From: Propionivibrio soli
GTDB taxonomy: Bacteria > Pseudomonadota > Gammaproteobacteria > Burkholderiales > Rhodocyclaceae
DNA length: 64,000 bases
Direction of reading: 5' to 3'
NCBI RefSeq assembly: GCF_025770765.1
Contig: NZ_JANZKY010000018.1
Span: 1 to 64,000, forward strand
Shown: one piece after another, positions 48,542 to 64,000 of the stretch
Layout of the letters: each line of letters opens with the position of its first letter
Position numbering within the stretch: position 1 is the first letter of the stretch
The notes under the pieces: model-generated
What the model was told of the DNA's origin: nothing
The model's input: only the letters and a program-made list of their open reading frames with translations
Database searches by the model: none
Made by a program: the position numbers and the translations under genes

Positions 48542-49621
48542 ATGCTGTCCGTTGACGTTACCGATCTGGGAAACTCGCCCGCGCTGCCGCGGATAAGCCC
48601 ACTTGTGTGTCGGGCATTCAATCGGCTTTATGGCGGGGCGCGCTCGTTTCATGTGGACTTGCCGAACGTCTCCGGCGATATCGTCTTTTCGTATATGCCG
48701 GAAACAGATGAGATGCTGGATGCATCGGCGTCTTACCGATTCCGGATCGGTTCTCATACGGGTCGGCTGAGACTCGATACGTTGACGCAGGCGACATTGC
48801 TGCGTGAGCGCCGCGTCGATTTGCTTCCTCTTGAGTTGCGCTACATCCTTCTGGCCGATGCTTTGGAGCCGGTGGTAACCCTCCTTGAGCGCAATTTGCA
48901 AACCGAGATTGAGTGGGCCGCGCCGGACGATGATGACGAGGCTGCTCACGAAAAGCCGGACGTTCGCGGAAACGAAGCTTTCTTCACGATGCGTGTCCCC
49001 GGCGATTCCCCGTTATTGCACGGAAGCATTTCTTTCGACGACGAAGATGCGCTGGATGCCCTCGTGCCGCGCGGTATGTCTGCCGTGGCCACGACAGCGG
49101 CCTTCGATTTTCTGCGTGTCCCGCTCCGTTTCCGTATAGGCGCCACTCGCCTCAGTCTGCGCGAAGTACGAGGCATTGCGCGTGGCGACATTGTGAGCAT
49201 CGAGGAGTGGAGTGCCGCAGGAAGCGCCGTGCGTGTCCACGCACCGATCGGTGGCTCCGGAGGCTACGTGCTGCATGGTCTGGCAGAAGGTTCGCGAATC
49301 ACGCTTCAATCGATGAGAGACGAAACCATGAACGCAAACACGCGTGACGCTTCCGAAACACCAGCGGACGCCGCGAACCTGCCCCTTGACCGGCTCGATG
49401 CGCTCGAAGTGACGCTGCAATTCGACCTCGGTGAGATTTCTCTGTCATTGGGAGAGCTGAAGGCATTGCGGCCGGGACATGTGTTCGATCTGGGCCAGCC
49501 GTTGAATCGGAGTTCGGTGCGCATTCTTGCGCACGGGAACGTATTGGGCCGCGGCCACCTCGTGGCGGTTGGCGATCGATTGGGACTCAGAGTGTCGGAG
49601 TTCGCACTCAATGCCCTGTAG
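48542..49621 (+). CDS. sctQ: Type III secretion cytoplasmic ring protein SctQ
   Basis: A 359-residue protein with two SPOA (surface presentation of antigens) domains: one at about 190-260 (LRFRIGATRLSLREVRGIARGDIV) and one at about 290-359 (LEVTLQFDLGEISLSLGELKALRPGHVFDL). SctQ forms the sorting-platform pods under the export gate. The N-terminal half is divergent, as is usual. An internal ATG at 49328 with GAGAGA upstream could yield a separate 97-residue SctQ-C form, known from Yersinia and Salmonella. First recognisable gene of the cluster. Confidence 0.85.
   Translation: MLSVDVTDLGNSPALPRISPLVCRAFNRLYGGARSFHVDLPNVSGDIVFSYMPETDEMLDASASYRFRIGSHTGRLRLDTLTQATLLRERRVDLLPLELRYILLADALEPVVTLLERNLQTEIEWAAPDDDDEAAHEKPDVRGNEAFFTMRVPGDSPLLHGSISFDDEDALDALVPRGMSAVATTAAFDFLRVPLRFRIGATRLSLREVRGIARGDIVSIEEWSAAGSAVRVHAPIGGSGGYVLHGLAEGSRITLQSMRDETMNANTRDASETPADAANLPLDRLDALEVTLQFDLGEISLSLGELKALRPGHVFDLGQPLNRSSVRILAHGNVLGRGHLVAVGDRLGLRVSEFALNAL
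49328..49621 (+). CDS. Possible internal SctQ-C product
   Basis: In frame within sctQ. ATG at 49328 has GAGAGA about 7 bases upstream. The 97-residue product would be a short acidic linker plus the whole second SPOA domain, the same design as SctQ-C of Yersinia (YscQ-C) and Salmonella (SpaO-S). Not proven from sequence alone. Confidence 0.4.
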   Translation: MNANTRDASETPADAANLPLDRLDALEVTLQFDLGEISLSLGELKALRPGHVFDLGQPLNRSSVRILAHGNVLGRGHLVAVGDRLGLRVSEFALNAL

Positions 49622-49940: not shown

Positions 49941-50594
49941 ATGGAAATGCCCGAACCAGTAACGCTCGTTGCGCTCATTCTGGCGCTCGGCATTGCGCCT
50001 TTCGCGGCTTTGATGGTGACCTGTTTCACCAAGCTGGTCATCGTTTTCGGACTGCTGCGTACGGCGCTTGGGTTGCAGCAGACACCGCCGAATATGGTGC
50101 TGAATGGTATTGCCATTGTCCTATCGATCTACATCATGGCGCCCGTGGGCATGGATATTGCCGATGGGCTTCGCGGGCGAACATTTGGCGTAAAAGGGCA
50201 GGGAATCAACGACATCGTCGCTGTGGTCGATGCGGCCAAGCCGCCGATCCGGCAGTTTCTGGAGAAACATACGCGTGAACGCGAACGCCAGTTCTTTCTC
50301 AAATCGGCTTCCGCCATGTGGCCCAAGCAGCATGCCGACGAACTGGTAGCCAACGACTTCATGGTGCTCGTCCCGAGCTTTACCTTGAGCGAACTGACGC
50401 GTGCTTTTCAAATCGGCTTCGTGATTTACCTTGTCTTTGTCGTCGTCGATTTGATCGTTGCCACGATCCTGCTGGCGCTCGGCATGTCGATGCTCTCGCC
50501 GACGACCATATCGTTGCCTTTCAAATTGCTTCTTTTCGTGATGCTGGATGGATGGACGCGACTCGTCCACGGCCTCGTTCTTTCGTATCGCTAG
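49941..50594 (+). CDS. sctR: Type III secretion export gate protein SctR
   Basis: A 217-residue inner-membrane protein, FliP/YscR family. N-terminal spans ALILALGIAPFAALMVTCFTKLVIVFGLLR, conserved LGLQQTPPNMVLNGIAIVLS, periplasmic helical part, and C-terminal spans FVIYLVFVVVDLIVATILLALGM. SctR pentamers form the export pore with SctS and SctT. Unusually, sctV and not sctS follows. Confidence 0.96.
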   Translation: MEMPEPVTLVALILALGIAPFAALMVTCFTKLVIVFGLLRTALGLQQTPPNMVLNGIAIVLSIYIMAPVGMDIADGLRGRTFGVKGQGINDIVAVVDAAKPPIRQFLEKHTRERERQFFLKSASAMWPKQHADELVANDFMVLVPSFTLSELTRAFQIGFVIYLVFVVVDLIVATILLALGMSMLSPTTISLPFKLLLFVMLDGWTRLVHGLVLSYR

Positions 50595-50682: not shown

Positions 50683-52731
50683 ATGGCTCGTTCATTCGCA
50701 GTCCCCGATAACGGAATCCGGGCGTTGTTCCGAGGTGCGGGGCGACAGAGCGACCTCGCGCTGGCCGCGCTCCTTATGGCTATCGTGGCGCTGTTCGTGT
50801 TGCCGCTGCCGACACCGGTTCTCGACCTGCTGATCGCCACCAACCTCTCGATCAGCCTGGTTCTGATCGTCGTTGCCATGTACATCCCGTCGGCATTGTC
50901 ATTGTCGACGTTCCCGTCATTGCTGCTATTCACGACGCTTTTCAGACTGGCACTCAACATCGCGTCAACGAAGTTGATCCTTCTGCATGCCAATGCGGGT
51001 CACATCATCGACACGTTCGGCAAGCTGATCGTTGGCAATAACGTCGTTGTCGGCGGCGTAGTGTTTCTCATCATCGCGATCGTTCAGTTCATCGTGGTTG
51101 CGAAAGGCTCGGAGCGCGTGGCGGAAGTGGCGGCACGCTTTGCCCTCGACGCCATGCCCGGCAAGCAGATGAGCATCGACGCCGAAGTTCGGGCCGGCGT
51201 GCTTTCGTCGGAGCAAGCGCAACGTCGGCGCCAGATGCTTGAGCGCGAGAGCAGCCTCCATGGTGCGATGGACGGCGCAATGAAGTTCGTGAAGGGCGAC
51301 GCCATCGCTGGCATCGTCATCGCGGTGGTCAATATCCTCGCCGGCATTACGATCGGCACGTTGATGCGCGACATGAGCCTCGGCGACGCACTGCAGCGCT
51401 ACGCGATCCTTACGGTCGGCGACGGCATGGTGTCGCAGATTCCGTCGTTGCTGGTGTCGATCGCGGCCGGCATCGTCATCACGCGGGTCGATTCGAGCGG
51501 ATCGCAGCTCGCGGGACAGATCGGCAGTCAACTGCTTGCACATCCGCGTGCGCTGGCGATCGCCGGCCTTGCAGTGGCGAGCTTCATCATCGTCCCAGGT
51601 TTTCCGAAGTGGGTTTTCCTGCTGCTCTCGGCGACGATTCTTGGGCTCGCGTGGGTATCGCGTTCCTTCCTCGAACGCGGACGGATACCACTCTGGATCT
51701 CGCACCGCGACGAGGAAGATATCGGAAGCGATGCTCCCGCGCCGATCGCCGCACCGCTGGCCGTGCGTCTCGCCCAGGGCCTGCGCCGCACCGTGGACTT
51801 GCACCTACTCGATCAAAGGCTGGCGGCAGGCAAGGCCAACGTCGAAGGACAACTTGGCCCGGTTTTTCCGCACATACAGGTTTCGTTCTCCGGGCCGGCT
51901 GACAGCAACGACTACGTCATCGAGGTTCACGGTGTCGCCGTGGCACGCGGCACGTTGAATCCCGGCTGCCTTCTGCTCGATCCTGGCGCCGTAGCTGTTC
52001 CCGCCGACGCGCAGATCGCTGAACCGTTCGGGCCATTCGCCCGCGTTGCCTGGGTTGAGCGCGCGCCGGAAGACGCCAGGGCGTGGACGCCGGAAGAGGT
52101 CGTCGGTCTGCATGTCGAACATTCCGTACGTCAGCATGCGTCCGAGTTGCTCGGATTGCAGGAAGTACACCGGTTGCTGCAATCATTGCAACGCGAAGCA
52201 CCCGATCTCGCCACCGAAATCTCTCGCGTCGTACCTACGCCGCGGATGGCGGAAGTGTTGCGTCGCCTTCTTCAAGAGGGCGTGCCCGTGCGCAATCTCT
52301 TGCGCATTGGCGAGAGTCTGGTGAACTGGGCACAGAGAGAGCAGGACACGATCGCGCTCACGGAGCAGGTACGCATCGACATGGGCCGCTACATCACGAG
52401 TCGTTACGTCGGCGCCGACCGTCAGCTCCCGGTTGTGTTGTTCGAGTCGAATCTGCTCGACACGATTGCGGGCGCCATCGAACGGTCGCCGACCGGAAAC
52501 CGGCTCTTGCTGAATCCGTCGATCGCCGAAGATATCCGAGAGCAGATGCGCCGCATTGTCGACTCGGTGAACGGGCGCGTCGTAGCCGTCGTCTCATTCG
52601 ACGTACGTCGTTACGTGAAGCTCTTGCTGCAACCGGCCATTCCTCAGTTGGTCGTTCTTTCGTACCAGGAAATCGACGACGACGTGGCGTTGCACCCCGT
52701 CGGCTGGATCACCCATCCTCAGACCGCTTGA
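50683..52731 (+). CDS. sctV: Type III secretion major export gate SctV
   Basis: A 682-residue FHIPEP (FlhA/YscV) protein. About eight membrane spans are in the first 330 residues, including the conserved LFRLALNIASTKLIL and the FHIPEP loop DAMPGKQMSIDAEVRAG. A cytosolic domain that forms the nonameric ring follows (about 350-682, with RVAWVERAPEDARAW). It selects substrates and uses the proton motive force. It sits between sctR and sctS. Confidence 0.97.
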   Translation: MARSFAVPDNGIRALFRGAGRQSDLALAALLMAIVALFVLPLPTPVLDLLIATNLSISLVLIVVAMYIPSALSLSTFPSLLLFTTLFRLALNIASTKLILLHANAGHIIDTFGKLIVGNNVVVGGVVFLIIAIVQFIVVAKGSERVAEVAARFALDAMPGKQMSIDAEVRAGVLSSEQAQRRRQMLERESSLHGAMDGAMKFVKGDAIAGIVIAVVNILAGITIGTLMRDMSLGDALQRYAILTVGDGMVSQIPSLLVSIAAGIVITRVDSSGSQLAGQIGSQLLAHPRALAIAGLAVASFIIVPGFPKWVFLLLSATILGLAWVSRSFLERGRIPLWISHRDEEDIGSDAPAPIAAPLAVRLAQGLRRTVDLHLLDQRLAAGKANVEGQLGPVFPHIQVSFSGPADSNDYVIEVHGVAVARGTLNPGCLLLDPGAVAVPADAQIAEPFGPFARVAWVERAPEDARAWTPEEVVGLHVEHSVRQHASELLGLQEVHRLLQSLQREAPDLATEISRVVPTPRMAEVLRRLLQEGVPVRNLLRIGESLVNWAQREQDTIALTEQVRIDMGRYITSRYVGADRQLPVVLFESNLLDTIAGAIERSPTGNRLLLNPSIAEDIREQMRRIVDSVNGRVVAVVSFDVRRYVKLLLQPAIPQLVVLSYQEIDDDVALHPVGWITHPQTA

Positions 52732-52748
52732 ACAGGGAAACGGAAAAC

Positions 52749-53015
52749 ATGACACCCAATCACATTCTCGATATCACGCGTGAAGGGCTGCTAGTCGTCC
52801 TTGCCGTCTCGCTCCCCATCGTCGTCGTGGCGACAGTCAGCTCGCTGCTCGTCGCCGTGGTGCAGGCGGTGACGCAGATCCAGGACCAAAGCATCGGGCA
52901 GAACGTGCGCCTGCTCGTTGTGATGATTGCCGTGGTGATTGGTGCCGGTGTGCTGGGAAGCGCGGTTCTGCGTTTCTCGGAACTCGGTTTTCAGACCTTA
53001 GTCGAAATCAGATGA
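52749..53015 (+). CDS. sctS: Type III secretion export gate protein SctS
   Basis: An 88-residue FliQ/YscS protein with two membrane spans (LLVVLAVSLPIVVVATVSSLLVAVVQAVTQIQDQ and LLVVMIAVVIGAGVLG). The conserved TQIQDQSI is present. The ATG at 52749 has AGGGA upstream; the frame is open much further into sctV, but those codons are a shadow. It overlaps sctC by 4 bases. Confidence 0.95.
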   Translation: MTPNHILDITREGLLVVLAVSLPIVVVATVSSLLVAVVQAVTQIQDQSIGQNVRLLVVMIAVVIGAGVLGSAVLRFSELGFQTLVEIR

Positions 53016-54847
53016 AGCCGGGAAGCGCAGTGGCGATGATCTTGCGCGGCGTTCTTCTGGGCGCGACGATGCTCTTGGGAGCGTCGTTCTGGTCGGCCTC
53101 ACAAGCGGCCGAACTGAATTGGAATAATCGCTCTTTCCGGATTGTCGCGTCCGACAAGAGCCTGGCCGATTTCCTGCGCGAACTTGCGGCGTCTCAAGAT
53201 ACGACCGCCGTCATCGACCCGGCAGTAACCGGCACCATTAGCGGAAAGTTTTCCGGTCCGGCGCTGCGCATATTGAACAGCGTGGCGTCGGCGAATGGGC
53301 TGACGTGGTATTACGACGGATCGTTCCTCTACATCGAGAATGCCGCTGATGCCCGCAGCGAGGTTTTCGCCATCAAAGGCGAGAATGCCAAGCGCATCGC
53401 GGAGACGCTCGAGATGCTGAGGATCACCGATTCACGCCATCCGTTTACCGTGTTCGAGCGGGAGGGGCAGGGTAGCGTTCACGTCTCCGGGCCGAAGCGT
53501 TACCTGGAGATGGTGCGCAAGGCGATCGAATCGGTCGAGCGGCCGACGGCGGCTCCCGAAAACGCGGAGATACGCCTCTTCCCCTTGAAGTACGCATGGG
53601 CTTCGGACTTCAAGATCATGCGGGCGCGCAAGGAAGTGACGATTCCCGGTGTCGCGAATGTCCTGAACACCTTGTTTGCCGGCCGCCAGAGTTCGACCAC
53701 CGGAGCCGCGTTAGGACCGGCGACGGCCGAGGGCCCAATACGTCAGCCGCGCATGGGTGGGGAGTTTGCGCGCCGCGATCTCGCCAGCATGATGCTTCCG
53801 GAGATTCCAGCCGGTGCCGGCGATATTGGCAACATGCTCGGCGGTGCGCGGCCAAGCGGCCCGAATCTGCCGCAGTTCCATGCCGATACACGGCTCAATG
53901 CGGTGATCGTGCGCGACGTGCCCGACCGGATGGAGCGCTACGCGGCGGTGATCAGATCGCTCGACATACGGCCCCGGTTGATCGAGATCGAAGTCACGAT
54001 CATGGATATCAGCCGCGACAACCTCAATCAGCTCGGAGTCGACTGGCGCTTGCACTCGAAGCATCTCGACATCCAGACCGGGAACGGCAACCGTAACCAG
54101 CAAACGTGGGGTACCGGTCCGGGAGGCGGCGAGACGGGGCAGGTCGGAGGCGTGGACGACAACGGCACCCTGCTCACTCCGCTTGGCGGGCTATTCAGCG
54201 CGGCGATTGGTAATTCCGCGAGCAATTACCTGCTGGCGCGTGTCTATGCGCTGGCGGCCAACGGAAAAGCCGAATTCGTGGCCCGCCCGAAAGTCCTTAC
54301 GCTCGACAACATCGAGGCGGTGCTTGAGAACCTGCGCGAGTTGCATGTCCGCGTGCAGGGCTTCCAGGACGCCGGATTGTTCAACATCATCACCGGCACG
54401 TCGGTGCGCGTCACGCCATTGATCGTCGACGAGGAACCAGCGCGCGGCGTGATGATGTCGATCAATATCGAGGACGGCGACCTGTCGCAGCAGGCGGTGG
54501 ACCAGATTCCGATCATCAACCGCCGTACCGTGAACACGCAGGCCATGGTCGAGGAAGGGCAGAGCTTGCTCATCGCCGGCTATTCGTCGCAAGAGAAGAC
54601 GGAAGCCGTCAATCGCGTGCCTTTCCTTTCGGACATTCCGGTCATTGGTCCGCTCTTCACCTACAACGAGAAGAAGCATGCGGACATGGAGCGGTTCTAT
54701 CTGTTGACGCCGCGTCTCGTGATTCCACGCTTCACCCCCGGCCCGGACGGCACGATTGACCCACGTTCACTGCCTGGGCTGCCGCCAGGAACTCCCAGTG
54801 GGTCCGGCGTGCCCGGGGATTCGGCGCCTGTCCAAGGAGCTGGCTAG
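53012..54847 (+). CDS. sctC: Type III secretion outer-membrane secretin SctC
   Basis: A 611-residue secretin. A signal peptide (to about residue 33, LGASFWSASQAAE) is followed by N0, N1 and N3 ring domains and then the secretin core (about 390-580: VARPKVLTLDNIEAVL, PIINRRTVNTQAMVEEGQSLLIAGY, VPFLSDIPVIGPLF). The C-terminal tail is Pro/Gly-rich. It forms the outer-membrane ring through which the needle passes. sctD follows with no gap. Confidence 0.96.
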   Translation: MKPGSAVAMILRGVLLGATMLLGASFWSASQAAELNWNNRSFRIVASDKSLADFLRELAASQDTTAVIDPAVTGTISGKFSGPALRILNSVASANGLTWYYDGSFLYIENAADARSEVFAIKGENAKRIAETLEMLRITDSRHPFTVFEREGQGSVHVSGPKRYLEMVRKAIESVERPTAAPENAEIRLFPLKYAWASDFKIMRARKEVTIPGVANVLNTLFAGRQSSTTGAALGPATAEGPIRQPRMGGEFARRDLASMMLPEIPAGAGDIGNMLGGARPSGPNLPQFHADTRLNAVIVRDVPDRMERYAAVIRSLDIRPRLIEIEVTIMDISRDNLNQLGVDWRLHSKHLDIQTGNGNRNQQTWGTGPGGGETGQVGGVDDNGTLLTPLGGLFSAAIGNSASNYLLARVYALAANGKAEFVARPKVLTLDNIEAVLENLRELHVRVQGFQDAGLFNIITGTSVRVTPLIVDEEPARGVMMSINIEDGDLSQQAVDQIPIINRRTVNTQAMVEEGQSLLIAGYSSQEKTEAVNRVPFLSDIPVIGPLFTYNEKKHADMERFYLLTPRLVIPRFTPGPDGTIDPRSLPGLPPGTPSGSGVPGDSAPVQGAG

Positions 54848-55984
54848 ATGGATACAACGTCAGCCACGCCTCAACCGGGATGGTGCCTGCGGTTCCTGAG
54901 CGGCGCCGTCAAAGGACGGATCATTGCTCTGCATCCTGGGCAGAACGTCATCGGCTCGGGCAGCGATTGCGACGTCATGCTGCCGAGCAGCGACGTGTTG
55001 CCGCGTCACCTGATCGTCAACGTTGGCGATCTCGTTGTCACCGTGCAGCGCGTGGGCACCGCGACGGCGACGTTCAATGACGGCGAAATGGAACAGCGGC
55101 GGCGTTCCGTCGCGGTGGGTGATGTGGTCGCGGTCGGGCAAATCACCTTCCAGTTCGATCGTTCGTATCCTGCCGCCGCTCGCGACGAGTCGCCGTTCGA
55201 TTGGCCGGACACGATGTTTGCGAAGAGCACTACGGAAACACTCGCCGAAGAAGCGCCCGAGCCACCGCGCGTGCGGTGGGCGGCGGCAGCGTGTCTGTTC
55301 GCCGCGGCTGTCGTCGTGGTCGTCTGGGCTGGATTCTTCCGCGGTCCTGCCGGCCCTTCGCCGGCGAGCGAAGTGAATGCGGAGGCCGTCAATCGAGCCG
55401 TGGTCGGTTATCCCGAAGTGGAAGTCGTCACGCTCATCGATGGAAAGCTCGCTGTACGCGGCTTCGTGGAGTCGAAGGCACGCAAGCAGGCCCTGCTCGA
55501 AGCGCTCAAGCCCTTCGGGTCGCGCGTCGACATCAACGTGCAGCCCGCCGACGAGATCGTGGCGCAAGCCCATCGTTACCTCGGCAGCCCGGCGATTGCG
55601 GTGAATTACACCGGCCGCGGTCAAGTCGTCTTGTCGGGCACTTCGGATGACGAGCAGTTGCCGCGCCGAGTCAAACAGCTCGCCGAGGACTTGCACCCGA
55701 CCGTGCTGGTGGTCGATCGCGTCGACTACCGTCCGAAGGATCCGTCGAAGACGCGTTCGGCGGTTTCGGACCGGGAAAAGTGGGCGGCATGGCAGAGCCA
55801 ATTACCTGCGCGTCTCGTGAGCATTACCGACGACGGCAACGGCGGGCGTTATATCCAGCTCGCCAACGGCAGTCGCTATTACGAAGGCGCCGTGCTGCGT
55901 TCGGGCGTCGAGGTACAGCAGATCGATGCGGACGAGGGCCTGAGCTTTAGCTCGCCTACGCCCGTACAGGAATCGGAAAAATGA
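54848..55984 (+). CDS. sctD: Type III secretion inner-membrane ring protein SctD
   Basis: A 378-residue protein. An N-terminal FHA-like domain (RIIALHPGQNVIGSGSDCDVMLPSSDVLPRHL), one membrane span at about 147-165 (AAACLFAAAVVVVVWAGFF), and a periplasmic part with repeated ring-building folds (VTLIDGKLAVRGFVESKARKQALLEAL). This is the SctD/YscD/PrgH layout. It makes the outer of the two inner-membrane rings. Confidence 0.88.
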   Translation: MDTTSATPQPGWCLRFLSGAVKGRIIALHPGQNVIGSGSDCDVMLPSSDVLPRHLIVNVGDLVVTVQRVGTATATFNDGEMEQRRRSVAVGDVVAVGQITFQFDRSYPAAARDESPFDWPDTMFAKSTTETLAEEAPEPPRVRWAAAACLFAAAVVVVVWAGFFRGPAGPSPASEVNAEAVNRAVVGYPEVEVVTLIDGKLAVRGFVESKARKQALLEALKPFGSRVDINVQPADEIVAQAHRYLGSPAIAVNYTGRGQVVLSGTSDDEQLPRRVKQLAEDLHPTVLVVDRVDYRPKDPSKTRSAVSDREKWAAWQSQLPARLVSITDDGNGGRYIQLANGSRYYEGAVLRSGVEVQQIDADEGLSFSSPTPVQESEK

Positions 55985-56125: not shown

Positions 56126-56347
56126 ATGGCAGTTAACGCAACGAACTCTTCGACCAGCGACAACATCGCCCTGATGCAGAAGATGCAACAGGAAAACGCC
56201 GCGCTGATGACCACCAGCATGACCGTATCCACCGCCGTTCAGGGCATGTCGACGGCGGCGCACACGGTGAACGCCGCTAGTGCCGCCGGCACGGAAGTGG
56301 GCAAAGGTGCAGCCAACGACGTACGTCAGGCGGCCAAGCAGGCCTGA
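56126..56347 (+). CDS. Candidate needle/pilin subunit (SctF-like)
   Basis: A 73-residue helical protein (MAVNATNSSTSDNIALMQKM...) rich in Ala, Ser, Thr, Gln and Met with no Cys, Pro, Trp, Tyr or Phe. Such composition and size fit needle or Hrp-pilus subunits, which polymerise outside the cell. It lies between sctD and sctI, with AGGAG before the ATG. Hairpins on both sides suggest separate mRNA control, as for abundant structural subunits. I do not recognise the family by a specific motif, so the call is from context and composition; a HrpB1-type accessory protein is less likely because it is much shorter. Confidence 0.45.
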   Translation: MAVNATNSSTSDNIALMQKMQQENAALMTTSMTVSTAVQGMSTAAHTVNAASAAGTEVGKGAANDVRQAAKQA

Positions 56348-56487: not shown

Positions 56488-56922
56488 ATGAGTTTACCCA
56501 TCGAATCGATCGGCACGGCGTCCGAGTCGGCCGCTAGCGCGGCCGCCCGGCTCGTCGAGCAGTCGGCCCATGCCGAAATGCCGAGAGGGCAGGATCAGGT
56601 CGAGGCCCGGTCGTTCGCCACTTTCATGAACGCCAACGAACCGGGCTATGGCTATCCGACGTCTTCGGTACGCGCACCCGACGCCTTGCACCGCGCAGCA
56701 CAAAGCCTGACGGCGCAATACGGCAATGATTACAGGACGTTCGAAGACATCCGGGCGAGCATGGTGCAGTCGGTGGATTTCGCCAATCCGATCCGCACCA
56801 TGTTCACGATGACGAATCTTTCGATTGAGGCTCAGGCCAGCTTTACCCGCCTGCATCTGTCGAGCTCGCTGGCGAGCGCGGCAACGAGCCTCTTCGGCAA
56901 CTTGCTGAAGAACCAGCAGTGA
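56488..56922 (+). CDS. sctI: Type III secretion inner rod protein SctI (candidate)
   Basis: A 144-residue protein with a disordered N-terminal part and a helical C-terminus (NPIRTMFTMTNLSIEAQASFTRLHLSSSLASAATSLFGNLLKNQQ). This end resembles inner rod proteins such as HrpB2 or YscI, which connect the export gate with the needle. ATG with AGGAGA upstream; it overlaps sctJ by 4 bases. Position before sctJ is the usual one for sctI. Sequence similarity in this family is weak, so the call leans on order. Confidence 0.7.
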   Translation: MSLPIESIGTASESAASAAARLVEQSAHAEMPRGQDQVEARSFATFMNANEPGYGYPTSSVRAPDALHRAAQSLTAQYGNDYRTFEDIRASMVQSVDFANPIRTMFTMTNLSIEAQASFTRLHLSSSLASAATSLFGNLLKNQQ

Positions 56923-57722
56923 AACGCGCGATGAGCAGGTCTGGCGTCCGCACCACGGGGCATGCCTTCCGGTGCCTGCTCGCGGTGGCGTGCCTTGTGC
57001 TCGCCGGCTGCGAGACCGAGTTGTATTCGAGTCTCCGCGAACAGGAAGCGAACGAGATCCTCGCTGCATTGGCTGACGGCGGCATTCACGGCAAGAAGGC
57101 GCGGCTCGAAGGCGACAACTGGCAAGTACTCGTCGACGAGACACAACTTGGCACGGCGCTGTCGCTGCTCCGTGCCCAAGGTCTGCCACAGGAACGACGC
57201 GTCACGATGGGCGACGTGTTCCAGAAGCAAGGCCTTGTTTCTACGCCCTCGGAAGAACGCATGCGTTACATCTTCGCTGTATCGCAAGAGTTGTCGCAGA
57301 CCCTGCGCGAGATCGATGGTGTCGTTTCGGCCAGGGTTCACGTGGTGATTCCGGAGAACGACCCCTTGAGCACCCGCGTGCGTCCCTCGTCGGCGGCGGT
57401 GTTCATCAAACATGCGCCTGACACCGATCTGCAGTTGCTTACGCCGACGGTCAAGGATCTCGTCGCACACTCCATCGAAGGCTTGACGCATGCCCAAGTG
57501 GCGCTGACGTTGATCGAAGCGCGGCGGCCCGAGGTGCGCGTGGCCGCGGCGTCGGCGGCGCTTCCCGCAGGGGCGGAGACCGATGCGTTCTCTCGGCAGA
57601 CCGTGGCCATCGTTGTGGCGCTCTTGATTGCCGGCGCCATTTCCCTGATTGCTCTTCCGGCATTGCTGCGCAAGAACGGGCGTGACTGGGGATGGTTTCT
57701 GAATCGAGTGCTGCGTCGATGA
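56919..57722 (+). CDS. sctJ: Type III secretion inner-membrane lipoprotein SctJ
   Basis: A 267-residue lipoprotein of the YscJ/FliF family. Signal peptide with lipobox LAGC, then ring-building domains (YSSLREQEANEILAALADGGIHGKKARLEGDNWQVLVDE and LREIDGVVSARVHVVIPEND), and a C-terminal membrane span (VAIVVALLIAGAISLIALPALL). It forms the inner of the two inner-membrane rings. GTG start overlapping the sctI stop; an ATG lies 4 codons in. Confidence 0.96.
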   Translation: MKRAMSRSGVRTTGHAFRCLLAVACLVLAGCETELYSSLREQEANEILAALADGGIHGKKARLEGDNWQVLVDETQLGTALSLLRAQGLPQERRVTMGDVFQKQGLVSTPSEERMRYIFAVSQELSQTLREIDGVVSARVHVVIPENDPLSTRVRPSSAAVFIKHAPDTDLQLLTPTVKDLVAHSIEGLTHAQVALTLIEARRPEVRVAAASAALPAGAETDAFSRQTVAIVVALLIAGAISLIALPALLRKNGRDWGWFLNRVLRR

Positions 57723-58441
57723 ACAGCATTGTGACCGACCTGGATGCCGTCGTTGCCGCGGCTGCACGTCCTCCGAAACTGGAAGCGTACTTTCCGGCGG
57801 AACCGGTACATCTTGCCCGGCTGGTCGCGCGGTTCGCGCTGCACCCCGAGCTGGATATTCATCCAAGTTGGTTGCCGGCGAACTGGCCACCTCGTTTCCG
57901 TCGAGCGGAACGCTTCGGCGTACGGGGCCAAGCCGTACTCGCCGATTGGCTGCATGCGCATACACCGCGAATAGAACTCGATTTCAGCGAGCCTATACGG
58001 CGGCTGCTTCTCGTTGATGGTCCGACACTGCGCCGTCTCGCGTTTTACTGCAGTTTCTGCGCGCATGCGCCGCTGCTCGAACAACGCGGCCCGGTAGCGC
58101 GTCGGTTGAGACGGCAAATGCAACGGATTGACGACGATGCCCGTGACTTTGTTCTTGGACGCACACCTCGGCTGTCGGCTTTTTCCATGGATGCGTCCGC
58201 TATCGAACGCCGGCCGGCGTCCGCCGGGCGCGTGTTGACGAGCCGTGGCTACCGGCTCCTGCGAGGCGTTGTTGCTCTGCAGGGTGATGCCGTGCTGCAT
58301 CGCCTCGAACGCAAATTACCGCGGGCCGCCTCGTTCGCGCGTGCGCCGCAACTCACTGACATCCAGGCCAATCAGCTCTCGGAGCTGATCCAGATGTGCC
58401 TTATTCCGGAGAGATTTGCGCAATGGGACTGGCTTTTCTGA
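57719..58441 (+). CDS. sctK: Type III secretion sorting-platform protein SctK (candidate)
   Basis: A 240-residue cytosolic protein encoded between sctJ and sctL. It has HPSWLPANW near residue 50, a pattern seen in SctK/HrpB4 proteins, and an otherwise Arg-rich helical sequence. SctK links SctD to SctQ in the sorting platform. It overlaps sctJ by 4 bases and sctL by 19. The family is divergent, so the call rests mainly on position. Confidence 0.65.
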   Translation: MNSIVTDLDAVVAAAARPPKLEAYFPAEPVHLARLVARFALHPELDIHPSWLPANWPPRFRRAERFGVRGQAVLADWLHAHTPRIELDFSEPIRRLLLVDGPTLRRLAFYCSFCAHAPLLEQRGPVARRLRRQMQRIDDDARDFVLGRTPRLSAFSMDASAIERRPASAGRVLTSRGYRLLRGVVALQGDAVLHRLERKLPRAASFARAPQLTDIQANQLSELIQMCLIPERFAQWDWLF

Positions 58442-59052
58442 TTACCACGGAACACCTGCAACTGCTCAGTGAACGCAAGGTGCTCAAAGAGGCCGAGTAC
58501 GCCGCGTTGCTCGACGCGCAAGCGGTGGTCGACACGGCTCGGCGCGAGGCGCAGCGCATCGTGCGGGAGGCCAACAGCCAGGCGGCGGAGATGCGTCGAC
58601 GCGGCCATCAAGAAGGACTCGAGGAAGCAAAGGGTGTTTACGCCGACCGCTTGATCGAGGTGGCGATGGGCAGCCGGCAGCAGTTGCAGGCCTTGCGTGA
58701 CTCAATGGTCGGCCTGGTAACGAAGGCGATTCAGCAGTTCGTGCTCGAAACCGATGCCAGCGAACTGTTCGAGGCGGCCCTCGTGCGTGTCGATGCCTTG
58801 ATCCGCCACGAACCGTATATCAGCGTACGCGTTGCTCCGGAGCAGGAGGCGGCATTTCGGCAAGCGCTCGGGCGGCTCAAGGACGAGGCGGGCTGGATCG
58901 CCAACGTTTCGGTGCAGGCCGATCCGGCGCTCGCCGAAGGTTCGTGTGTCATGCATACGGCGTCGGGTACGCTGGAGATCGGCGTCGACGCCCAATTGCA
59001 GGCCTTTCAACGCGCGATTGAACGCTCTGCGCCGCAACTCGTCGGGCATTAA
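58423..59052 (+). CDS. sctL: Type III secretion ATPase stator SctL
   Basis: A 209-residue protein of the FliH/YscL/HrpB5 family. N-terminal FLITTEHLQLLSERKVLKEAEYAALLDAQAVVDTARREAQRIVREA, a long coiled coil, then a globular end (YISVRVAPEQEAAFRQAL and LEIGVDAQLQAF) like V-ATPase subunit E. It regulates SctN and links it to SctQ. The ATG at 58423 has GGAG upstream and lies within the sctK end. Confidence 0.88.
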   Translation: MGLAFLITTEHLQLLSERKVLKEAEYAALLDAQAVVDTARREAQRIVREANSQAAEMRRRGHQEGLEEAKGVYADRLIEVAMGSRQQLQALRDSMVGLVTKAIQQFVLETDASELFEAALVRVDALIRHEPYISVRVAPEQEAAFRQALGRLKDEAGWIANVSVQADPALAEGSCVMHTASGTLEIGVDAQLQAFQRAIERSAPQLVGH

Positions 59053-59070: not shown

Positions 59071-60435
59071 ATGTCTGCGCCCTCCCACATCCGCCCCGAT
59101 TCGGTAACTCTGTCCGATCTCGCTGACGGTTTCGTCTCCGAGTTCGAACAGGCGATCACGCGCGCCACGCCGGTTCGCGTGCGCGGGCGTGTGAGCAAGG
59201 CGGTCGGGATGTTGATCAGCGCGACGGGTATCCAGGCGCACGTCGGCGAACTTTGTGAACTGGTAACACCCGGCGAGCCGCCACTGCTCGCGGAAGTGGT
59301 CGGCTTCCTGCAGAACACGGCGATTCTTACGCCGCTTGGCGCGACGACGGGAATTTCGGCGTTGACCGAAGTCGTTCCATCCGGGCGTGGCCATGTTTGT
59401 CCGGTCGGCGCGGGACTGTTGGGGCGCGCGATCAACGCGCTCGGCGAGCCGATCGATGGCCGCGGCCCTGTTGATGCTCAAGCCTGGCTGCCCGTGCACC
59501 GGGAACCCGTGAGTCCGCTCGCCCGGCAGATGATTACGCAGGCGCTTACCACAGGCATTCGCGCCATCGACGGCCTGTTGACGCTCGGCGTCGGGCAACG
59601 CATGGGCGTGTTTTCGCCGCCTGGGATTGGCAAGAGTACCTTGCTCGGCATGCTGGCGCGTTCGTCCACGGCGGATGTGAATGTCATTGCGCTCGTCGGC
59701 GAGCGTGGTCGCGAAGTCAAGGAATTCATCGAGCACAACCTTGGACCCGAAGGACTTGCGAAGTCTGTGCTAGTCGTCTCGACGTCGGACCGCCCGCCAA
59801 TGGAGCGTGTGAAGTCGGCGTATGTGGCGACAACGATAGCCGAACATTTTCGCGACAAAGGACAGTCGGTTCTGTTGCTCGTCGATTCACTGACGCGTTT
59901 TGCCCGCGCTCAGCGCGAGATCGGCTTGGCCAGTGGCGAGCCGCCGACGCGGCGCAGCTATCCGCCGTCGATCTTCTCGATGCTGCCCCAACTGCTCGAA
60001 CGTGCCGGACAGGGCGGCGCGGGAGCGATCACCGCCATCTATTCGGTCCTTACCGAGGGTGATGAGGAGAACGACCCGATCGCGGAGGAGGTACGTTCAA
60101 TCGTCGATGGGCACATCGTTCTCTCGCGCAAGCTGGCCGCCGCCAATCATTTTCCGGCCATCGATGTATTGGAGAGCGTGAGCCGCGTCATGCCGCAGGT
60201 GACAGGCGCGGCTCATCGCGAGGCGGCGGCGAAGGCGCGGGCGTTGCTTGCCAAATATCAGGAGGTCGAGCTGCTGGTGCAGATCGGCGAGTACCGAGCT
60301 GGTACGGACGAACTGGCCGACCGGGCGATCGCGGTGCGGCCCTCGCTGCAGGATTTCCTTAAACAACGGCCGGAAGCCGCGCAATCGCTGGAGCACAGCG
60401 TCGGCGCCTTGCGCGAATTGGCGGGAACATCATGA
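59071..60435 (+). CDS. sctN: Type III secretion ATPase SctN
   Basis: A 454-residue hexameric ATPase, F1-beta/FliI family, that unfolds substrates and releases chaperones. Walker A PPGIGKST at about 183-190, Walker B in VLLLVDSLTRFARAQREIGLA, and the PPTRRSYPPSIFSMLPQLLERAGQ segment. Full length with beta-barrel, catalytic and C-terminal domains. It overlaps sctO by 4 bases. Confidence 0.97.
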   Translation: MSAPSHIRPDSVTLSDLADGFVSEFEQAITRATPVRVRGRVSKAVGMLISATGIQAHVGELCELVTPGEPPLLAEVVGFLQNTAILTPLGATTGISALTEVVPSGRGHVCPVGAGLLGRAINALGEPIDGRGPVDAQAWLPVHREPVSPLARQMITQALTTGIRAIDGLLTLGVGQRMGVFSPPGIGKSTLLGMLARSSTADVNVIALVGERGREVKEFIEHNLGPEGLAKSVLVVSTSDRPPMERVKSAYVATTIAEHFRDKGQSVLLLVDSLTRFARAQREIGLASGEPPTRRSYPPSIFSMLPQLLERAGQGGAGAITAIYSVLTEGDEENDPIAEEVRSIVDGHIVLSRKLAAANHFPAIDVLESVSRVMPQVTGAAHREAAAKARALLAKYQEVELLVQIGEYRAGTDELADRAIAVRPSLQDFLKQRPEAAQSLEHSVGALRELAGTS

Positions 60436-60944
60436 ACAGCGAAATGACCGTCGACTGGAAGCGGCTGATTGAAGTCCGCCGTAAGCAGCAGGTTGCCGCC
60501 CAAGAAGTCGTGGCCCTCGACCGCCGCAGGGAAGAGGAAGCGGCCGCGTTGGTGCGGCACGTGGCTTCCGAACTTGAGGCAAGGCAGTTGGCGAAGCGGG
60601 CGCATTGGCAGGCGATCGAGAGTGCGGCGCGCGAATCCGGCTGCACCATGCGTTCGCTCAGCGAGGCCCGTGCCTGGAGCGGCGCGCTCGATGCGCAGAT
60701 TGCTAAGGGGCAAGCGGATCTCTCCGAGGCGCAGACGGCGCACTGCGAGAAACTTGCCGTGCTGGAACGCAGCCGTGCGCGGCTACGTGCCGCGGCGGGG
60801 GAAGTGCGCAAGGCCGAGGAAATGCTCAAGCGGGAGCAGTCCGCGATGGCGCAGCAGCGGGAAACGCGACGGGAAGCCTTGGCCGAGGAAGCGGCAAGAG
60901 TTCTCTGGTCGTCCGGGCACTTCGCCGCGGCGGGGCGAGCGTGA
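60432..60944 (+). CDS. sctO: Type III secretion stalk protein SctO
   Basis: A 170-residue protein that is almost all helix and heptad-like (LIEVRRKQQVAAQEVVALDRRREEEAAALVRH, and AQTAHCEKLAVLERSRARLRAAAGEVRKAEEML). It fits the FliJ/YscO/HrpB7 central stalk that enters the SctN ring. Identified by position after sctN and by the coiled-coil hairpin pattern, as sequence is poorly conserved. Confidence 0.72.
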   Translation: MNSEMTVDWKRLIEVRRKQQVAAQEVVALDRRREEEAAALVRHVASELEARQLAKRAHWQAIESAARESGCTMRSLSEARAWSGALDAQIAKGQADLSEAQTAHCEKLAVLERSRARLRAAAGEVRKAEEMLKREQSAMAQQRETRREALAEEAARVLWSSGHFAAAGRA

Positions 60945-60954
60945 GGTCAAGGAC

Positions 60955-61743
60955 ATGGAACTGACGTTCGACTTTTCCATGGTACGAAGCTGGGTTGGCG
61001 CGGTGGCTTTGAGCGTGCCGCGGCTTCTCATGCTCTTCCTCGTCGTCCCGTTCCTTTCCGGGAGCATGATCCCCGGCTTGGCGCGCAACGGCGTCGTCCT
61101 GACGTTCGCCCTGTTCGTCGCCCCGATGATCGTCGACACCGTACCGCCGCTGACTCTCGTCTCTTGGGGATTGGCCCTCAAGGAAGCGCTCGTCGGCCTA
61201 TTGCTCGGACTCGGCTTCGGTATTTTCATCTGGGCCATTCAGAGCGTCGGCGACCTTGTCGACTTCATGACCGGGTCAAGCAATGCCGCGTTCTTCGACC
61301 CGGCGGCGGGTCATGAAAACGGCCCGACGGGCGAGTTTTTGAGTTGGCTGACGATCGCGCTATTTGTTGCCTCGGGCGGATTGCAGGCGATGTTCGCAGC
61401 CGTTCTCGACTCGTATACCCTTTGGCCCGTCGGCGCCTGGATGCCCGAACTCGGCAATATTCTCGAGGGATTTGCGGTCCGTCAGGGCGACACGCTCTTC
61501 CAGTGGATCGTCAAGCTGGGCGCGCCGGTGCTGCTCATCCTCTTGCTAGTAGAGATTGGGCTCGGACTGGTCGGCCGCGAGGCGCAGCAGTTGAATGTGT
61601 TCTTCGCCGCCCAGCCGGTCAAGAGTTTGATTGCGGCATTCATGATGCTGCTGTGGCTGCAATTCGTTTTTGACTCCCTGCGCGGATTCCTGCTTCCCGA
61701 AAACGGGGTGCTGGAATTCCTACGCTCGGCGATGGGGAAATGA
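60955..61743 (+). CDS. sctT: Type III secretion export gate protein SctT
   Basis: A 262-residue FliR/YscT membrane protein with about six spans (SVPRLLMLFLVVPFLSG, LVGLLLGLGFGIFIWAIQSVGDLVDFM, LLILLLVEIGLGLVGREAQQLNVFFAAQPVKSLIA). It contributes to the export pore with SctR and SctS. The ATG at 60955 is 10 bases after sctO; the upstream open frame is a shadow of sctO. Confidence 0.95.
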   Translation: MELTFDFSMVRSWVGAVALSVPRLLMLFLVVPFLSGSMIPGLARNGVVLTFALFVAPMIVDTVPPLTLVSWGLALKEALVGLLLGLGFGIFIWAIQSVGDLVDFMTGSSNAAFFDPAAGHENGPTGEFLSWLTIALFVASGGLQAMFAAVLDSYTLWPVGAWMPELGNILEGFAVRQGDTLFQWIVKLGAPVLLILLLVEIGLGLVGREAQQLNVFFAAQPVKSLIAAFMMLLWLQFVFDSLRGFLLPENGVLEFLRSAMGK

Positions 61744-61753
61744 GGTAGCGACC

Positions 61754-62803
61754 ATGGCTGAAAAGACCCACCAGCCAACCCAACGACGTTTGCGCGACGC
61801 GCGCCGCCAAGGCGAAGTTGTCTTCAGTCTCGACCTTTCGTCGACGGCCGTTTTTTGGGTCGTCATCGCCATGGCGGCACTGCTGGCACCGACCGCGCTC
61901 ACCATGCTGCAGGAGCTATGGCTGCACGCCACCAGTCGCACATTGCTGACGCAACCGGATGACCGCTTCGGCGAGTTGGCCTTGCATAGCGCCGAGGTGT
62001 TGCTGTGGACGACGATACCCGTGATCGCCGTCGCCATCGTGGCGGCCGTTCTCGGTTCGTTTTTCCAGGTCGGCGGTCTTGCGGCGTGGGTTCGCCTGAA
62101 GCCCGACATCAACCGGCTCAATCCGGTTTCGGGCCTGCAGAACATCTTCTCGCTACGCAACCTGGTCAAGTTCGCGAAGATGATCGTCAAGACCTTGCTT
62201 CTGGCGGCACTGCTCTACGTCGTGATCCGGTCGTACCTCGATAGCGCATTGCGGCTCGGTTACCTGCCAGCTTCAGAGATCATGGCCTTGGGCGCGCGCA
62301 CCTTGCTGGTGACATTCGCCTGGGCAGGGATGGTATTCACCGCCAGCGCGGCTTTCGACTACGCACACGAGCGCTACGAGTTCATGCGTCGTCACCGTAT
62401 GTCGGATGAGGAATTGCGCCGCGAGCACAAGGAATCCGAGGGCGACCCAACGAACGTGGCACGGCGCCGCTCGGCGCATTTTGAGGCGATCTTCGCCAGC
62501 ATTGCCGACCGCGCGCGCGCGTGTTCGGTGATCGTTCTATCAAACCGCGTCGCCGTTGGACTGCAATACCTCGGACCAGACGATCTGCCGCGTGTGATGG
62601 TGGCCGGAGAAGGCGAAGTCGCAGCGCAAATCAGGCGCTTCGCGGCCGAAGGCGGCGTACCGGAAGAGATTGAGGCCGCCTTGGCCGAACGGTTGTATGA
62701 ACAGGCGCCCGTGGACCAGCCGGTTCCAAGGGCTTTGTATGGACAAGTCGCCCAAGTGCTGCAGCGGGCGCACGAGCCGAGCGGGAAGGGCAATCAGCCC
62801 TAG
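61754..62803 (+). CDS. sctU: Type III secretion switch protein SctU, without NPTH motif
   Basis: A 349-residue FlhB/YscU protein. The N-terminal EKTHQPTQRRLRDARRQGEV is typical, four membrane spans follow (about residues 30-200), then a cytosolic domain (about 205-349). The autocleavage motif NPTH is absent: the expected place reads VLSNRVAVGLQY (residues 261-272), so Asn264 remains but Pro-Thr-His-Tyr is replaced by Arg-Val with two residues missing. Surrounding features are intact, so the gene does not look broken. Ten bases after sctT, ATG start. Confidence 0.94.
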   Translation: MAEKTHQPTQRRLRDARRQGEVVFSLDLSSTAVFWVVIAMAALLAPTALTMLQELWLHATSRTLLTQPDDRFGELALHSAEVLLWTTIPVIAVAIVAAVLGSFFQVGGLAAWVRLKPDINRLNPVSGLQNIFSLRNLVKFAKMIVKTLLLAALLYVVIRSYLDSALRLGYLPASEIMALGARTLLVTFAWAGMVFTASAAFDYAHERYEFMRRHRMSDEELRREHKESEGDPTNVARRRSAHFEAIFASIADRARACSVIVLSNRVAVGLQYLGPDDLPRVMVAGEGEVAAQIRRFAAEGGVPEEIEAALAERLYEQAPVDQPVPRALYGQVAQVLQRAHEPSGKGNQP

Positions 62804-62872: not shown

Positions 62873-64000
62873 ATGCTAGACGGAGGCGGCGGCGTTAGCC
62901 GGACAACCTATACCCCACCAGTTACCGTGACGCCGGTCAATTATCCGTCGAATAACGGCGGCCAAAGCACCAATAACGCAAGCTCGACGGCTTCGGCCGC
63001 CGCCGCTCAGGCAGAGCGGGAAAGGGCGGCAGCGGCGGAACGGGCTGCCGAGCTGCGGCGACAGCTCGAAGCGCAACGGCAGGCAATGCTCGAAGCGCAG
63101 CGCAAGGCGCTTGCCGAACAGCAGAAGGCGGCTGAGGCCGAAGCCAAGGCGAAACGCGAAAAGGAAAACGCCGATCTTCAGAACAAGGCCAAAGTGGCGC
63201 GCGAAAAGGCGAACATTGAAGCCAACAAATGGGCTGACGCGCAGGCACAGGTCGAGCTGAGTGAAAAGGAAATCAAGCTTCAGGACGCGAAGGTAAAGGA
63301 TGCCAAGGCCGGTCGCTTGAGCAACAACCCCTCCGATGAAACTCGCAAAGCACAGGATCAGTACGACCTCGCAAAAGCGAACAAGGTGGAGACGAGTCGT
63401 TACGTGACCTGGTCCGAGGCCGAGCACAAGGCGGGGGAAGCCGAGCGTGCGAAAGCGCCGAATGCCACTCTGTTGCGTAACGAGGCGAACACGGCGAAGG
63501 CCGAGACCCTATATGCCGTGTCGCAAAGGAAGACGATCGAGGCGCGCATAGAGCGCGACAAGGTCAAGAATGATCCGAAAGCCGATCCGAACGACGTGCA
63601 GAAGGCAGAAGACGGCTACAACAAGGCGGTTGATGACGAGAAAGTTGAGAGCAAGCTAGTCGCTGCGGCCAAGGCTGAAGGTGAGGCAGCGAAAGCGGAG
63701 AACGACTTCAACACGCTTCCGGCAACGACGTCGCCGGCAGACAGGAAGGCGGCCCAGGAGAAGGCGAACAGCCTGCGCGCCGACGCCAACCTGAAGAAGA
63801 AAGAGTTCCTGGTGGCCGATGCCGAGCGGACGGCCAATGACGAGAAGCGCAACCTCGCGAACGTTTCGCGTAAAGCCCAGGATCTGCGCACGAAGTATGA
63901 AAAAGTCAATGGTGAATACAACACCACCAAAACTGATCTGGCCGCTGCCAAGGCGAACAACGACGAGAAGAAGGTCAAGGAACTCCAGACCAAACTGAAC
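62873..64000 (+). CDS. Long coiled-coil protein, possibly secreted (partial)
   Basis: An open frame from ATG 62873 (GAGGAGA upstream) with no stop for 376 codons to the end of the window. The first 45 residues are rich in Gly, Ser, Thr, Asn and Pro (MLDGGGGVSRTTYTPPVTVTP), as in type III secretion signals. The rest is rich in Ala, Lys, Glu and Gln with coiled-coil character (AERERAAAAERAAELRRQLEAQRQ), and repeated ARKAQD/KANK-type blocks. It may be a translocator, effector or needle-length ruler; I recognise no family. It lies 69 bases after sctU. Confidence 0.6.
   Translation, partial: MLDGGGGVSRTTYTPPVTVTPVNYPSNNGGQSTNNASSTASAAAAQAERERAAAAERAAELRRQLEAQRQAMLEAQRKALAEQQKAAEAEAKAKREKENADLQNKAKVAREKANIEANKWADAQAQVELSEKEIKLQDAKVKDAKAGRLSNNPSDETRKAQDQYDLAKANKVETSRYVTWSEAEHKAGEAERAKAPNATLLRNEANTAKAETLYAVSQRKTIEARIERDKVKNDPKADPNDVQKAEDGYNKAVDDEKVESKLVAAAKAEGEAAKAENDFNTLPATTSPADRKAAQEKANSLRADANLKKKEFLVADAERTANDEKRNLANVSRKAQDLRTKYEKVNGEYNTTKTDLAAAKANNDEKKVKELQTKLN

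What the first reader, a model, noticed from the sequence alone, without database searches (positions are those of the whole stretch)
62537..62572. SctU lacks the conserved NPTH autocleavage motif
In SctU/FlhB proteins, autocleavage between Asn and Pro of NPTH allows the switch from needle to later substrates. Here the aligned place reads LSNRVAVGLQY (residues 262-272): Asn264 is kept, but Pro, Thr, His and Tyr are replaced by Arg-Val with two residues lost. The flanking sequences on both sides are family-like and the frame is intact. Either this system switches substrates without cleavage, or it does not switch. It may belong to a divergent branch of type III systems.
Basis: partly seen in the sequence, partly recalled or inferred. 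Interest (0 to 1): 0.75.

Follow-up and report, generated by a model that had tools for sequence, protein, structure and literature searches.

The report
Secretion gate without its self-cleavage site
A branch of bacterial type III secretion machines, found in many relatives of Burkholderia, has lost the self-cutting site that textbook versions use to switch from building the needle to exporting other proteins, which offers a natural test of whether that cut is needed.

Summary
The core observation holds: the window's SctU (61754-62800, 349 aa, intact frame) has no NPTH. It is neither a sequencing error nor a private mutation. All 78 close SctU relatives listed in 398 genomes of Burkholderia's family lack NPTH, as do 34 of 35 loci from a genome-contig scan; the odd one falls outside the clade. 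Of 86 distinct clade sequences, 86 have Ser at the Asn column and the same one-residue gap. With the motif columns removed the clade is still one branch (100/100). It contains the Burkholderia cepacia complex injectisomes (published type BCI); the papers I searched do not report the loss. The switch domain keeps its fold in a model, and selection is purifying. I found no recognisable SctP (the ruler that in Xanthomonas needs NPTH to bind) in these clusters. The window's genome has a second type III system with NPTH and an HpaP-like gene. Best reading: ruler and cleavable loop were lost together and export runs without an NPTH switch (inferred). Ser-based self-cleavage remains an untested, bolder alternative.

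The parts
61754..62803 (+). sctU, 349 aa, without NPTH
   Evidence: PF01312 E=1.1e-79; TIGR01404 262 bits, below its cut-off of 358
62537..62551 (+). remodelled cleavage loop L-S-N-R-V (residues 262-266); Ser263 faces the catalytic Asn of other SctU/FlhB
   Evidence: alignments; predicted hairpin turn 263-265
48542..49621 (+). sctQ
   Evidence: PF01052 E=5e-19
49941..50594 (+). sctR
   Evidence: PF00813 E=1.7e-66
50683..52731 (+). sctV
   Evidence: TIGR01399 725 bits, above its cut-off
52749..53015 (+). sctS
   Evidence: PF01313 E=1.3e-15 within the longer ORF 52083-53015; start inferred
53012..54847 (+). sctC secretin
   Evidence: TIGR02516 422 bits, above its cut-off
54848..55984 (+). sctD
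   Evidence: TIGR02500 100 bits, above its cut-off of 86
56126..56347 (+). 73-aa gene, needle (sctF) candidate by position only
   Evidence: no Pfam match; small ORFs in the same place in relatives
56488..56922 (+). inner rod (sctI) candidate by position only; start inferred
   Evidence: no Pfam or NCBIfam match
56919..57722 (+). sctJ
   Evidence: TIGR02544 221 bits, above its cut-off
57692..58441 (+). sctK
   Evidence: PF06578 24.6 bits, cut-off 22
58396..59052 (+). sctL
   Evidence: TIGR02499 114 bits, above its cut-off
59071..60435 (+). sctN ATPase
   Evidence: PF00006 E=8.7e-86; TIGR02546 589 bits, just below its cut-off of 604.75
60432..60944 (+). 170-aa gene, sctO candidate by position only
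   Evidence: no Pfam match; relatives have an ORF of about 200 aa in this place
60955..61743 (+). sctT; start inferred
   Evidence: TIGR01401 192 bits, above its cut-off
62873..64000 (+). first part of a 2768-aa giant gene that runs past the window end (L094:874-9180)
   Evidence: open frame; PF16013 DUF4781 E=3.9e-18; related stretches in Burkholderia and Cupriavidus loci

Best explanation
This is the SctU of a type III secretion system in the clade that contains the Burkholderia cepacia complex injectisomes. In the ancestor of the clade the NPTH loop was replaced once: catalytic Asn to Ser, one residue deleted, His lost (shown by sequence and tree). The Asn chemistry of self-cleavage is therefore not available, and the cytoplasmic domain most likely stays one chain in the usual SctU fold (inferred). 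The clusters also show no recognisable SctP, the ruler which in Xanthomonas needs NPTH to bind SctU. The simplest account is that ruler and cleavable docking loop were lost together, and that the machine exports its proteins without the NPTH-dependent early-to-late switch (inferred). One possible reason is that it serves mainly the giant DUF4781 protein encoded near it (a guess).
For: 78 of 78 close relatives lack NPTH; 86 of 86 distinct sequences share Ser and the gap; one clade at 100/100 without the motif columns; dN/dS medians 0.22 and 0.17 over the whole gene, 0.20 and 0.10 over the cytoplasmic part; fold kept in the model, with uncleavable YscU and EscU mutants among the best PDB matches; no SctP-like ORF seen in the window cluster or in 6 relatives' clusters; PF09483 (HpaP) in 1 of 8 carrier genomes, beside that genome's other sctU. 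In the window's own genome the other system has NPTH and a PF09483 match between sctN and sctQ. N264A, P265A and P265G in Xanthomonas HrcU abolish HpaC binding (PMC3040844, passages).
Against: Cleavage was not tested in any member. Absence of SctP rests on a divergent family: PF09483 also misses whatever ruler serves the NPTH-type second systems of G590 and G592, and the own-genome match is just below the cut-off (22.3 against 23.8 bits). The genes at the sctF, sctI and sctO places are named by position only. Non-cleaving mutants of known systems are impaired in late export (PMC3542141, PMC3040844, passages), so a maintained natural one needs some compensation. The absolutely conserved Ser is not explained by mere loss. 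The link to the giant protein is unproven, and the region was seen in 9 of 38 loci only (most loci end too early to show it).
Confidence: 0.55

Rival explanations
1. SctU is not cleaved, but the system still switches: another protein (the giant, a chaperone, or an unrecognised ruler) changes the uncleaved domain's conformation.
For: Rulers are hard to recognise by sequence (PF09483 misses in G590 and G592). Point mutations in HrcU, FlhB and YscU can activate late export without the ruler (PMC3040844, passages).
Against: No candidate regulator was recognised in the clusters; PF07201 (SctW) was found in 2 of 9 carrier genomes, on other contigs than this system.
Confidence: 0.3
2. Ser263 carries out a different self-cleavage, an N-to-O acyl shift before Ser, as recalled for SEA domains, so the switch persists with new chemistry.
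For: Ser in 86 of 86 distinct sequences while its neighbours vary; both Ser codon families occur (79 TCN, 7 AGY); the place is a predicted tight hairpin turn.
Against: Nothing direct. A Ser in a tight turn can be conserved for structure alone, and the ruler that would use the cut is not recognised. The SEA parallel is from memory, not from a call.
Confidence: 0.08
3. The system is decaying and the loop drifted after loss of function.
For: Published work found no effectors and no needle gene for BCI (PMC8565462, passages and section 13); the window row has a long branch.
Against: dN/dS about 0.2, open frames, core genes kept in order, an invariant Ser, and a published BCI mutant of B. vietnamiensis colonises rice poorly (PMC8565462 abstract).
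Confidence: 0.05
4. Sequencing or alignment error in the window.
Against: Independent genomes of several genera carry the same gap and Ser.
Confidence: 0.01

Closest known systems
BCI, Burkholderia cepacia complex injectisome (Wallner et al. 2021, PMC8565462)
   Same: The SctU proteins of Burkholderia cepacia complex members fall in the same clade; shared core gene order from sctV to sctU; a giant gene nearby with DUF4781
   Different: In the window sctQ and sctR sit directly before sctV and the giant follows sctU; in the paper a >10 kb element separates sctR and sctQ from the rest. No LysM found. The host is in another family. The paper's text contains no 'NPTH'
Canonical autocleaving SctU/FlhB (YscU, EscU, Spa40, HrcU, FlhB)
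   Same: Same Pfam family over its whole length and same C-terminal fold in the model
   Different: NPTH gone, one residue shorter, Ser at the catalytic Asn
Laboratory non-cleaving mutants (YscU N263A/N263D, EscU N262A/N262D)
   Same: Among the best PDB matches to the model (2w0r, 3bzr, 2v5g, 3bzp); no catalytic Asn
   Different: Those are single-residue mutants; here the state is natural, clade-wide and under purifying selection
Natural motif variants NPEH, NPSH, NPTR
   Same: Departures from NPTH in SctU/FlhB (L007, L045, L047, L051); NPEH FlhB is reported to cleave (PMC7771051, passages)
   Different: They keep Asn-Pro and the loop length

Membership tests
SctU/FlhB protein family (PF01312) | Significant full-length profile match | tested here: met
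   268.6 bits against a cut-off of 24.4, residues 3-337 to profile 2-333 of 335
SctU/FlhB protein family (PF01312) | Encoded with the other export-gate genes | tested here: met
   sctR, S, T, V in the same cluster
SctU/FlhB protein family (PF01312) | C-terminal cytoplasmic domain fold | tested here: met
   Model pLDDT about 86-93 for residues 251-340; PDB matches are SctU/FlhB domains, E down to 4.7e-7
Autocleaving SctU/FlhB | NPTH, or at least Asn-Pro-x-His | tested here: not met
   Ser at the Asn column, one residue missing
Autocleaving SctU/FlhB | Actual cleavage | not testable with these tools
   Needs protein
NCBIfam TIGR01404 (SctU equivalog) | Score above the curated cut-off | tested here: not met
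   262.3 bits, cut-off 358; the window protein is divergent
BCI injectisome (PMC8565462) | Phylogenetic place with the Burkholderia cepacia complex systems | tested here: met
   SctU tree only, 100/100 for the clade; the published type was defined on SctC, SctN, SctT and SctV, which I did not treat by tree
BCI injectisome (PMC8565462) | >10 kb element separating sctR and sctQ from the rest | tested here: not met
   Window order is Q-R-V-S-C-D-...-T-U-giant; giant gene about 8.3 kb
BCI injectisome (PMC8565462) | LysM domain in the giant protein | tested here: not met
   Pfam finds DUF4781 but no LysM in the window giant, nor in the B. cenocepacia giant of L052, so the feature may need a more sensitive method
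BCI injectisome (PMC8565462) | LuxR-type regulator upstream | not tested
   -

The most novel reading that the evidence does not exclude
The clade replaced Asn-based autocleavage by a Ser-dependent self-processing of the same hairpin, cutting before Ser263: a second, independently evolved chemistry for the type III switch, which would explain why Ser is absolutely conserved while its neighbours drift.
Probability: 0.08. Interest if true: 0.88.

Novelty: new variant of a known kind. Interest (0 to 1): 0.66.

Why it matters
NPTH is called strictly conserved (PMC2615192, abstract passage) and its cleavage is central to models of how type III systems switch from needle parts to later substrates. 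A natural clade without it, with no recognisable ruler and under purifying selection, would show that a type III machine can be kept without that switch, or that it evolved another. Many carriers are culturable, so the role of cleavage could be studied in a system that never had it. The papers found by my searches do not report the loss; subscription journals were not searchable.

Tried and rejected
Sequencing error and displaced NPTH: rejected. First genome-contig scan with the single window protein: 46 pattern hits, none confirmed as a relative; repeated with alignment A1. In the window's genus (28 genomes, its own included) and family (199) the best matches besides the window's own SctU were 33% and 35% identical; in 369 genomes of the class only G419 and the window's genome passed E<=1e-42. 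All the loci fetched from these that reach the motif keep Asn-Pro: NPTH, or NPSH (L007), NPEH (L045), NPTR (L047, L051). G419's NPTR protein as an intermediate: rejected, it falls outside the clade. FlhX-like fragment on C12 (L004) as a separately encoded C-terminal half: not pursued. Only SctU was used for trees; SctV, SctN and SctR were not. PSI systems, named in the same 2021 paper, were not identified in my data.

Limits of counts: one search scored at most 5 candidates per genome and did not list all weaker matches; my 78 are all listed matches of at least 327 bits. The set of 73 NPTH rows is defined by its motif, so its uniformity is not a result; the same holds in part for the 32 comparison rows. 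Rows dropped: L096 (no SctU match), L001, L004, L005, L094 (own copies, fragment, flank), L118 (does not reach the motif). L207-L211 came later and are in no count; L207 and L208 lack NPTH, L210 and L211 have it. One search printed alignments for one locus only and was not used.

Full report
WHAT IS THERE. The ORF at 61754-62800 encodes a 349-residue SctU. Before it lie sctQ, R, V, S, C, D, two small genes (needle and inner-rod candidates by position), J, K, L, N, a 170-aa gene in the place of sctO, and T. After it comes a 2768-residue gene that runs past the window's end. The protein has no NPTH. The place reads S-V-I-V-L-S-N-R-V-A-V-G-L-Q-Y.

ALIGNMENT. Close relatives fix most of it: Burkholderia has V-V-Y-S-P-R-V-A-V, Cupriavidus V-V-Y-S-T-Q-Y-A-V, others F-S-A-R-H or H-S-A-N-A. 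All are one residue shorter than the canonical loop, with Ser in the catalytic Asn column. The gap sits one column apart in two alignments, so whether Pro or Thr went is open; the pairing of Ser263 with Asn is the same in both.

A CLADE FEATURE. A profile search of 398 genomes of Burkholderia's family listed 78 matches of at least 327 bits, in 75 genomes; the next listed match has 240.4 bits. All 78 were read: none has NPTH, and all have three residues between the Ser and the A-V/I-A-L strand. Of the weaker listed matches I fetched 15, and 15 of 15 have NPTH. In nine whole genomes 22 matches were found: 8 without NPTH, 13 with it, one that does not reach the motif. The genome-contig scan gave 35 loci, 34 without NPTH. 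Four Burkholderia plasmid or chromid records also lack it. Pooled, 95 strings reduce to 86 distinct sequences over a common core, all with Ser and the gap. In a tree of 61 rows without the motif columns the 25 NPTH-less rows form one clade at 100/100; the window groups with three Cupriavidus-type rows (98/95) on a long branch. One loss suffices.

CONSTRAINT. Median dN/dS over up to 150 sampled pairs per group is 0.22 (Burkholderia-type) and 0.17 (Cupriavidus-type), and 0.20 and 0.10 for the cytoplasmic part. Ser263 is TCN in 79 and AGY in 7 of 86. Six cytoplasmic positions are nearly fixed in the clade and rare in 32 other type III sequences; only two of them are also near-invariant in those, 222 (K to R) and 263 (N to S). 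The N there is partly by choice of the set. So Ser does not look like a random residue in a dead loop.

STRUCTURE. The AlphaFold2 model is weak overall (mean pLDDT 68.7, pTM 0.36) but good in the C-terminal domain (block means 86-93 for residues 251-340), with strands 259-262 and 266-271 around 263-265. The best PDB matches are YscU and EscU domains, four of the first five being cleavage-site mutants with the P or N changed (2w0r, 3bzr, 3bzt, 2v5g), the fifth (3c03) likewise; wild-type YscU 2jli is sixth. The mutants rank high probably because their chain is unbroken; this is not evidence about cleavage here.

SWITCH MODULE. I saw no SctP-like ORF between sctQ and sctU in the window, or between sctV and sctU in 6 relatives. 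This is by eye and position, not by a SctP profile for each ORF. HpaP (PF09483) occurs in 1 of 8 carrier genomes, about 3.5 kb from that genome's other, NPTH-type sctU; the two non-carrier genomes in the same call both have it. SctW (PF07201) occurs in 2 of 9 carriers, on other contigs. The window's genome has a second system on C1 with NPTH and a PF09483 match between its sctN and sctQ, 22.3 bits against a cut-off of 23.8. Against over-reading: G590 and G592 have NPTH-type second systems but no PF09483 match, so the profile misses some rulers, or they lack one.

MECHANISM. In Xanthomonas, mutations of the Asn and Pro abolish binding of the ruler HpaC (PMC3040844, passages). In Shigella, Spa40 N257A prevents cleavage and switching while needles are only slightly longer (PMC3542141, passages). 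I infer that ruler and docking loop were lost together and that the gate works in one mode. The giant nearby shares a DUF4781 stretch with the B. cenocepacia and Cupriavidus giants (26-30% identity); the B. cenocepacia one also matches DUF6782, a putative metallopeptidase family. A machine built mainly for one large cargo would need no order of export. That last step is a guess; 9 of 38 loci showed the DUF4781 region, most others ending 10 kb or less past sctU, before its place in L052.

WHAT IS KNOWN. BCI was named in 2021 (PMC8565462; outline with abstract, passages and sections 13 and 20 read): dominant in Burkholderia sensu stricto, also in Variovorax, no effector or needle gene found, a rice-colonisation defect in a B. 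vietnamiensis mutant. Its text has no 'NPTH'. A 2025 paper reports that B. cenocepacia clusters lack regulatory (SctP, SctW) and translocator genes (PMC12580581, passages); it treats nine cluster types, not BCI by name. Searches for the loss listed no paper that reports it, judged from listings and, for six papers, passages. One of these gives the family motif as NP(T/E)H (PMC7771051).

ORIGIN. Among plasmid records, the window genome's 16S is closest to Niveibacterium (Rhodocyclaceae) at 91.3%, then Burkholderiales near 90%. The tool puts it in the same order as Burkholderia's family but in another family (identical places in G608/G1263). In samples of 399 genomes of the order and 398 of the phylum, the NPTH-less type appeared in the window's genome and the same two Burkholderiaceae genomes only; two weaker matches in the order have NPTH. 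With its absence from 27 congeners this suggests transfer; not tested further.

Noticed in passing
62873-64000, on to L094:9180: Giant 2768-aa gene after sctU with a DUF4781 region and coiled-coil-like, low-complexity stretches; a candidate cargo of the system. The B. cenocepacia counterpart (L052, 3890 aa) also matches DUF6782 and has three HExxH motifs.
   Followed up: partly
56126-56347; L059:4347-4595, L060:4078-4359, L063:4084-4314: Small ORFs of about 73-93 aa between sctD and the sctI candidate: positional candidates for the needle gene that published work did not find in BCI clusters.
   Followed up: partly
L095 (G000:C1:400000-419000): Second type III cluster in the same genome, with NPTH in SctU and an HpaP-like match between sctN and sctQ.
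   Followed up: partly
L007, L045, L047, L051: Natural motif variants NPSH, NPEH and NPTR in other SctU/FlhB proteins, with loop length unchanged.
   Followed up: no
L106 (G592:C125): Divergent NPTH-type SctU (end branch 1.34) in the Paraburkholderia madseniana genome, next to the NPTH-less clade in the tree without strong support; possibly the isolated 'Mad' system of the 2021 paper.
   Followed up: no
G674, G692, G754 (L150/L163, L151/L164, L149/L165): Three genomes each carry two different NPTH-less SctU genes, so this type can be present twice.
   Followed up: no
L149-L155 (7 rows of the FSARH/FSPRH subclade): Ser263 is encoded by AGC or AGT here, one step from Asn codons AAC/AAT, against TCN elsewhere in the clade.
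   Followed up: no
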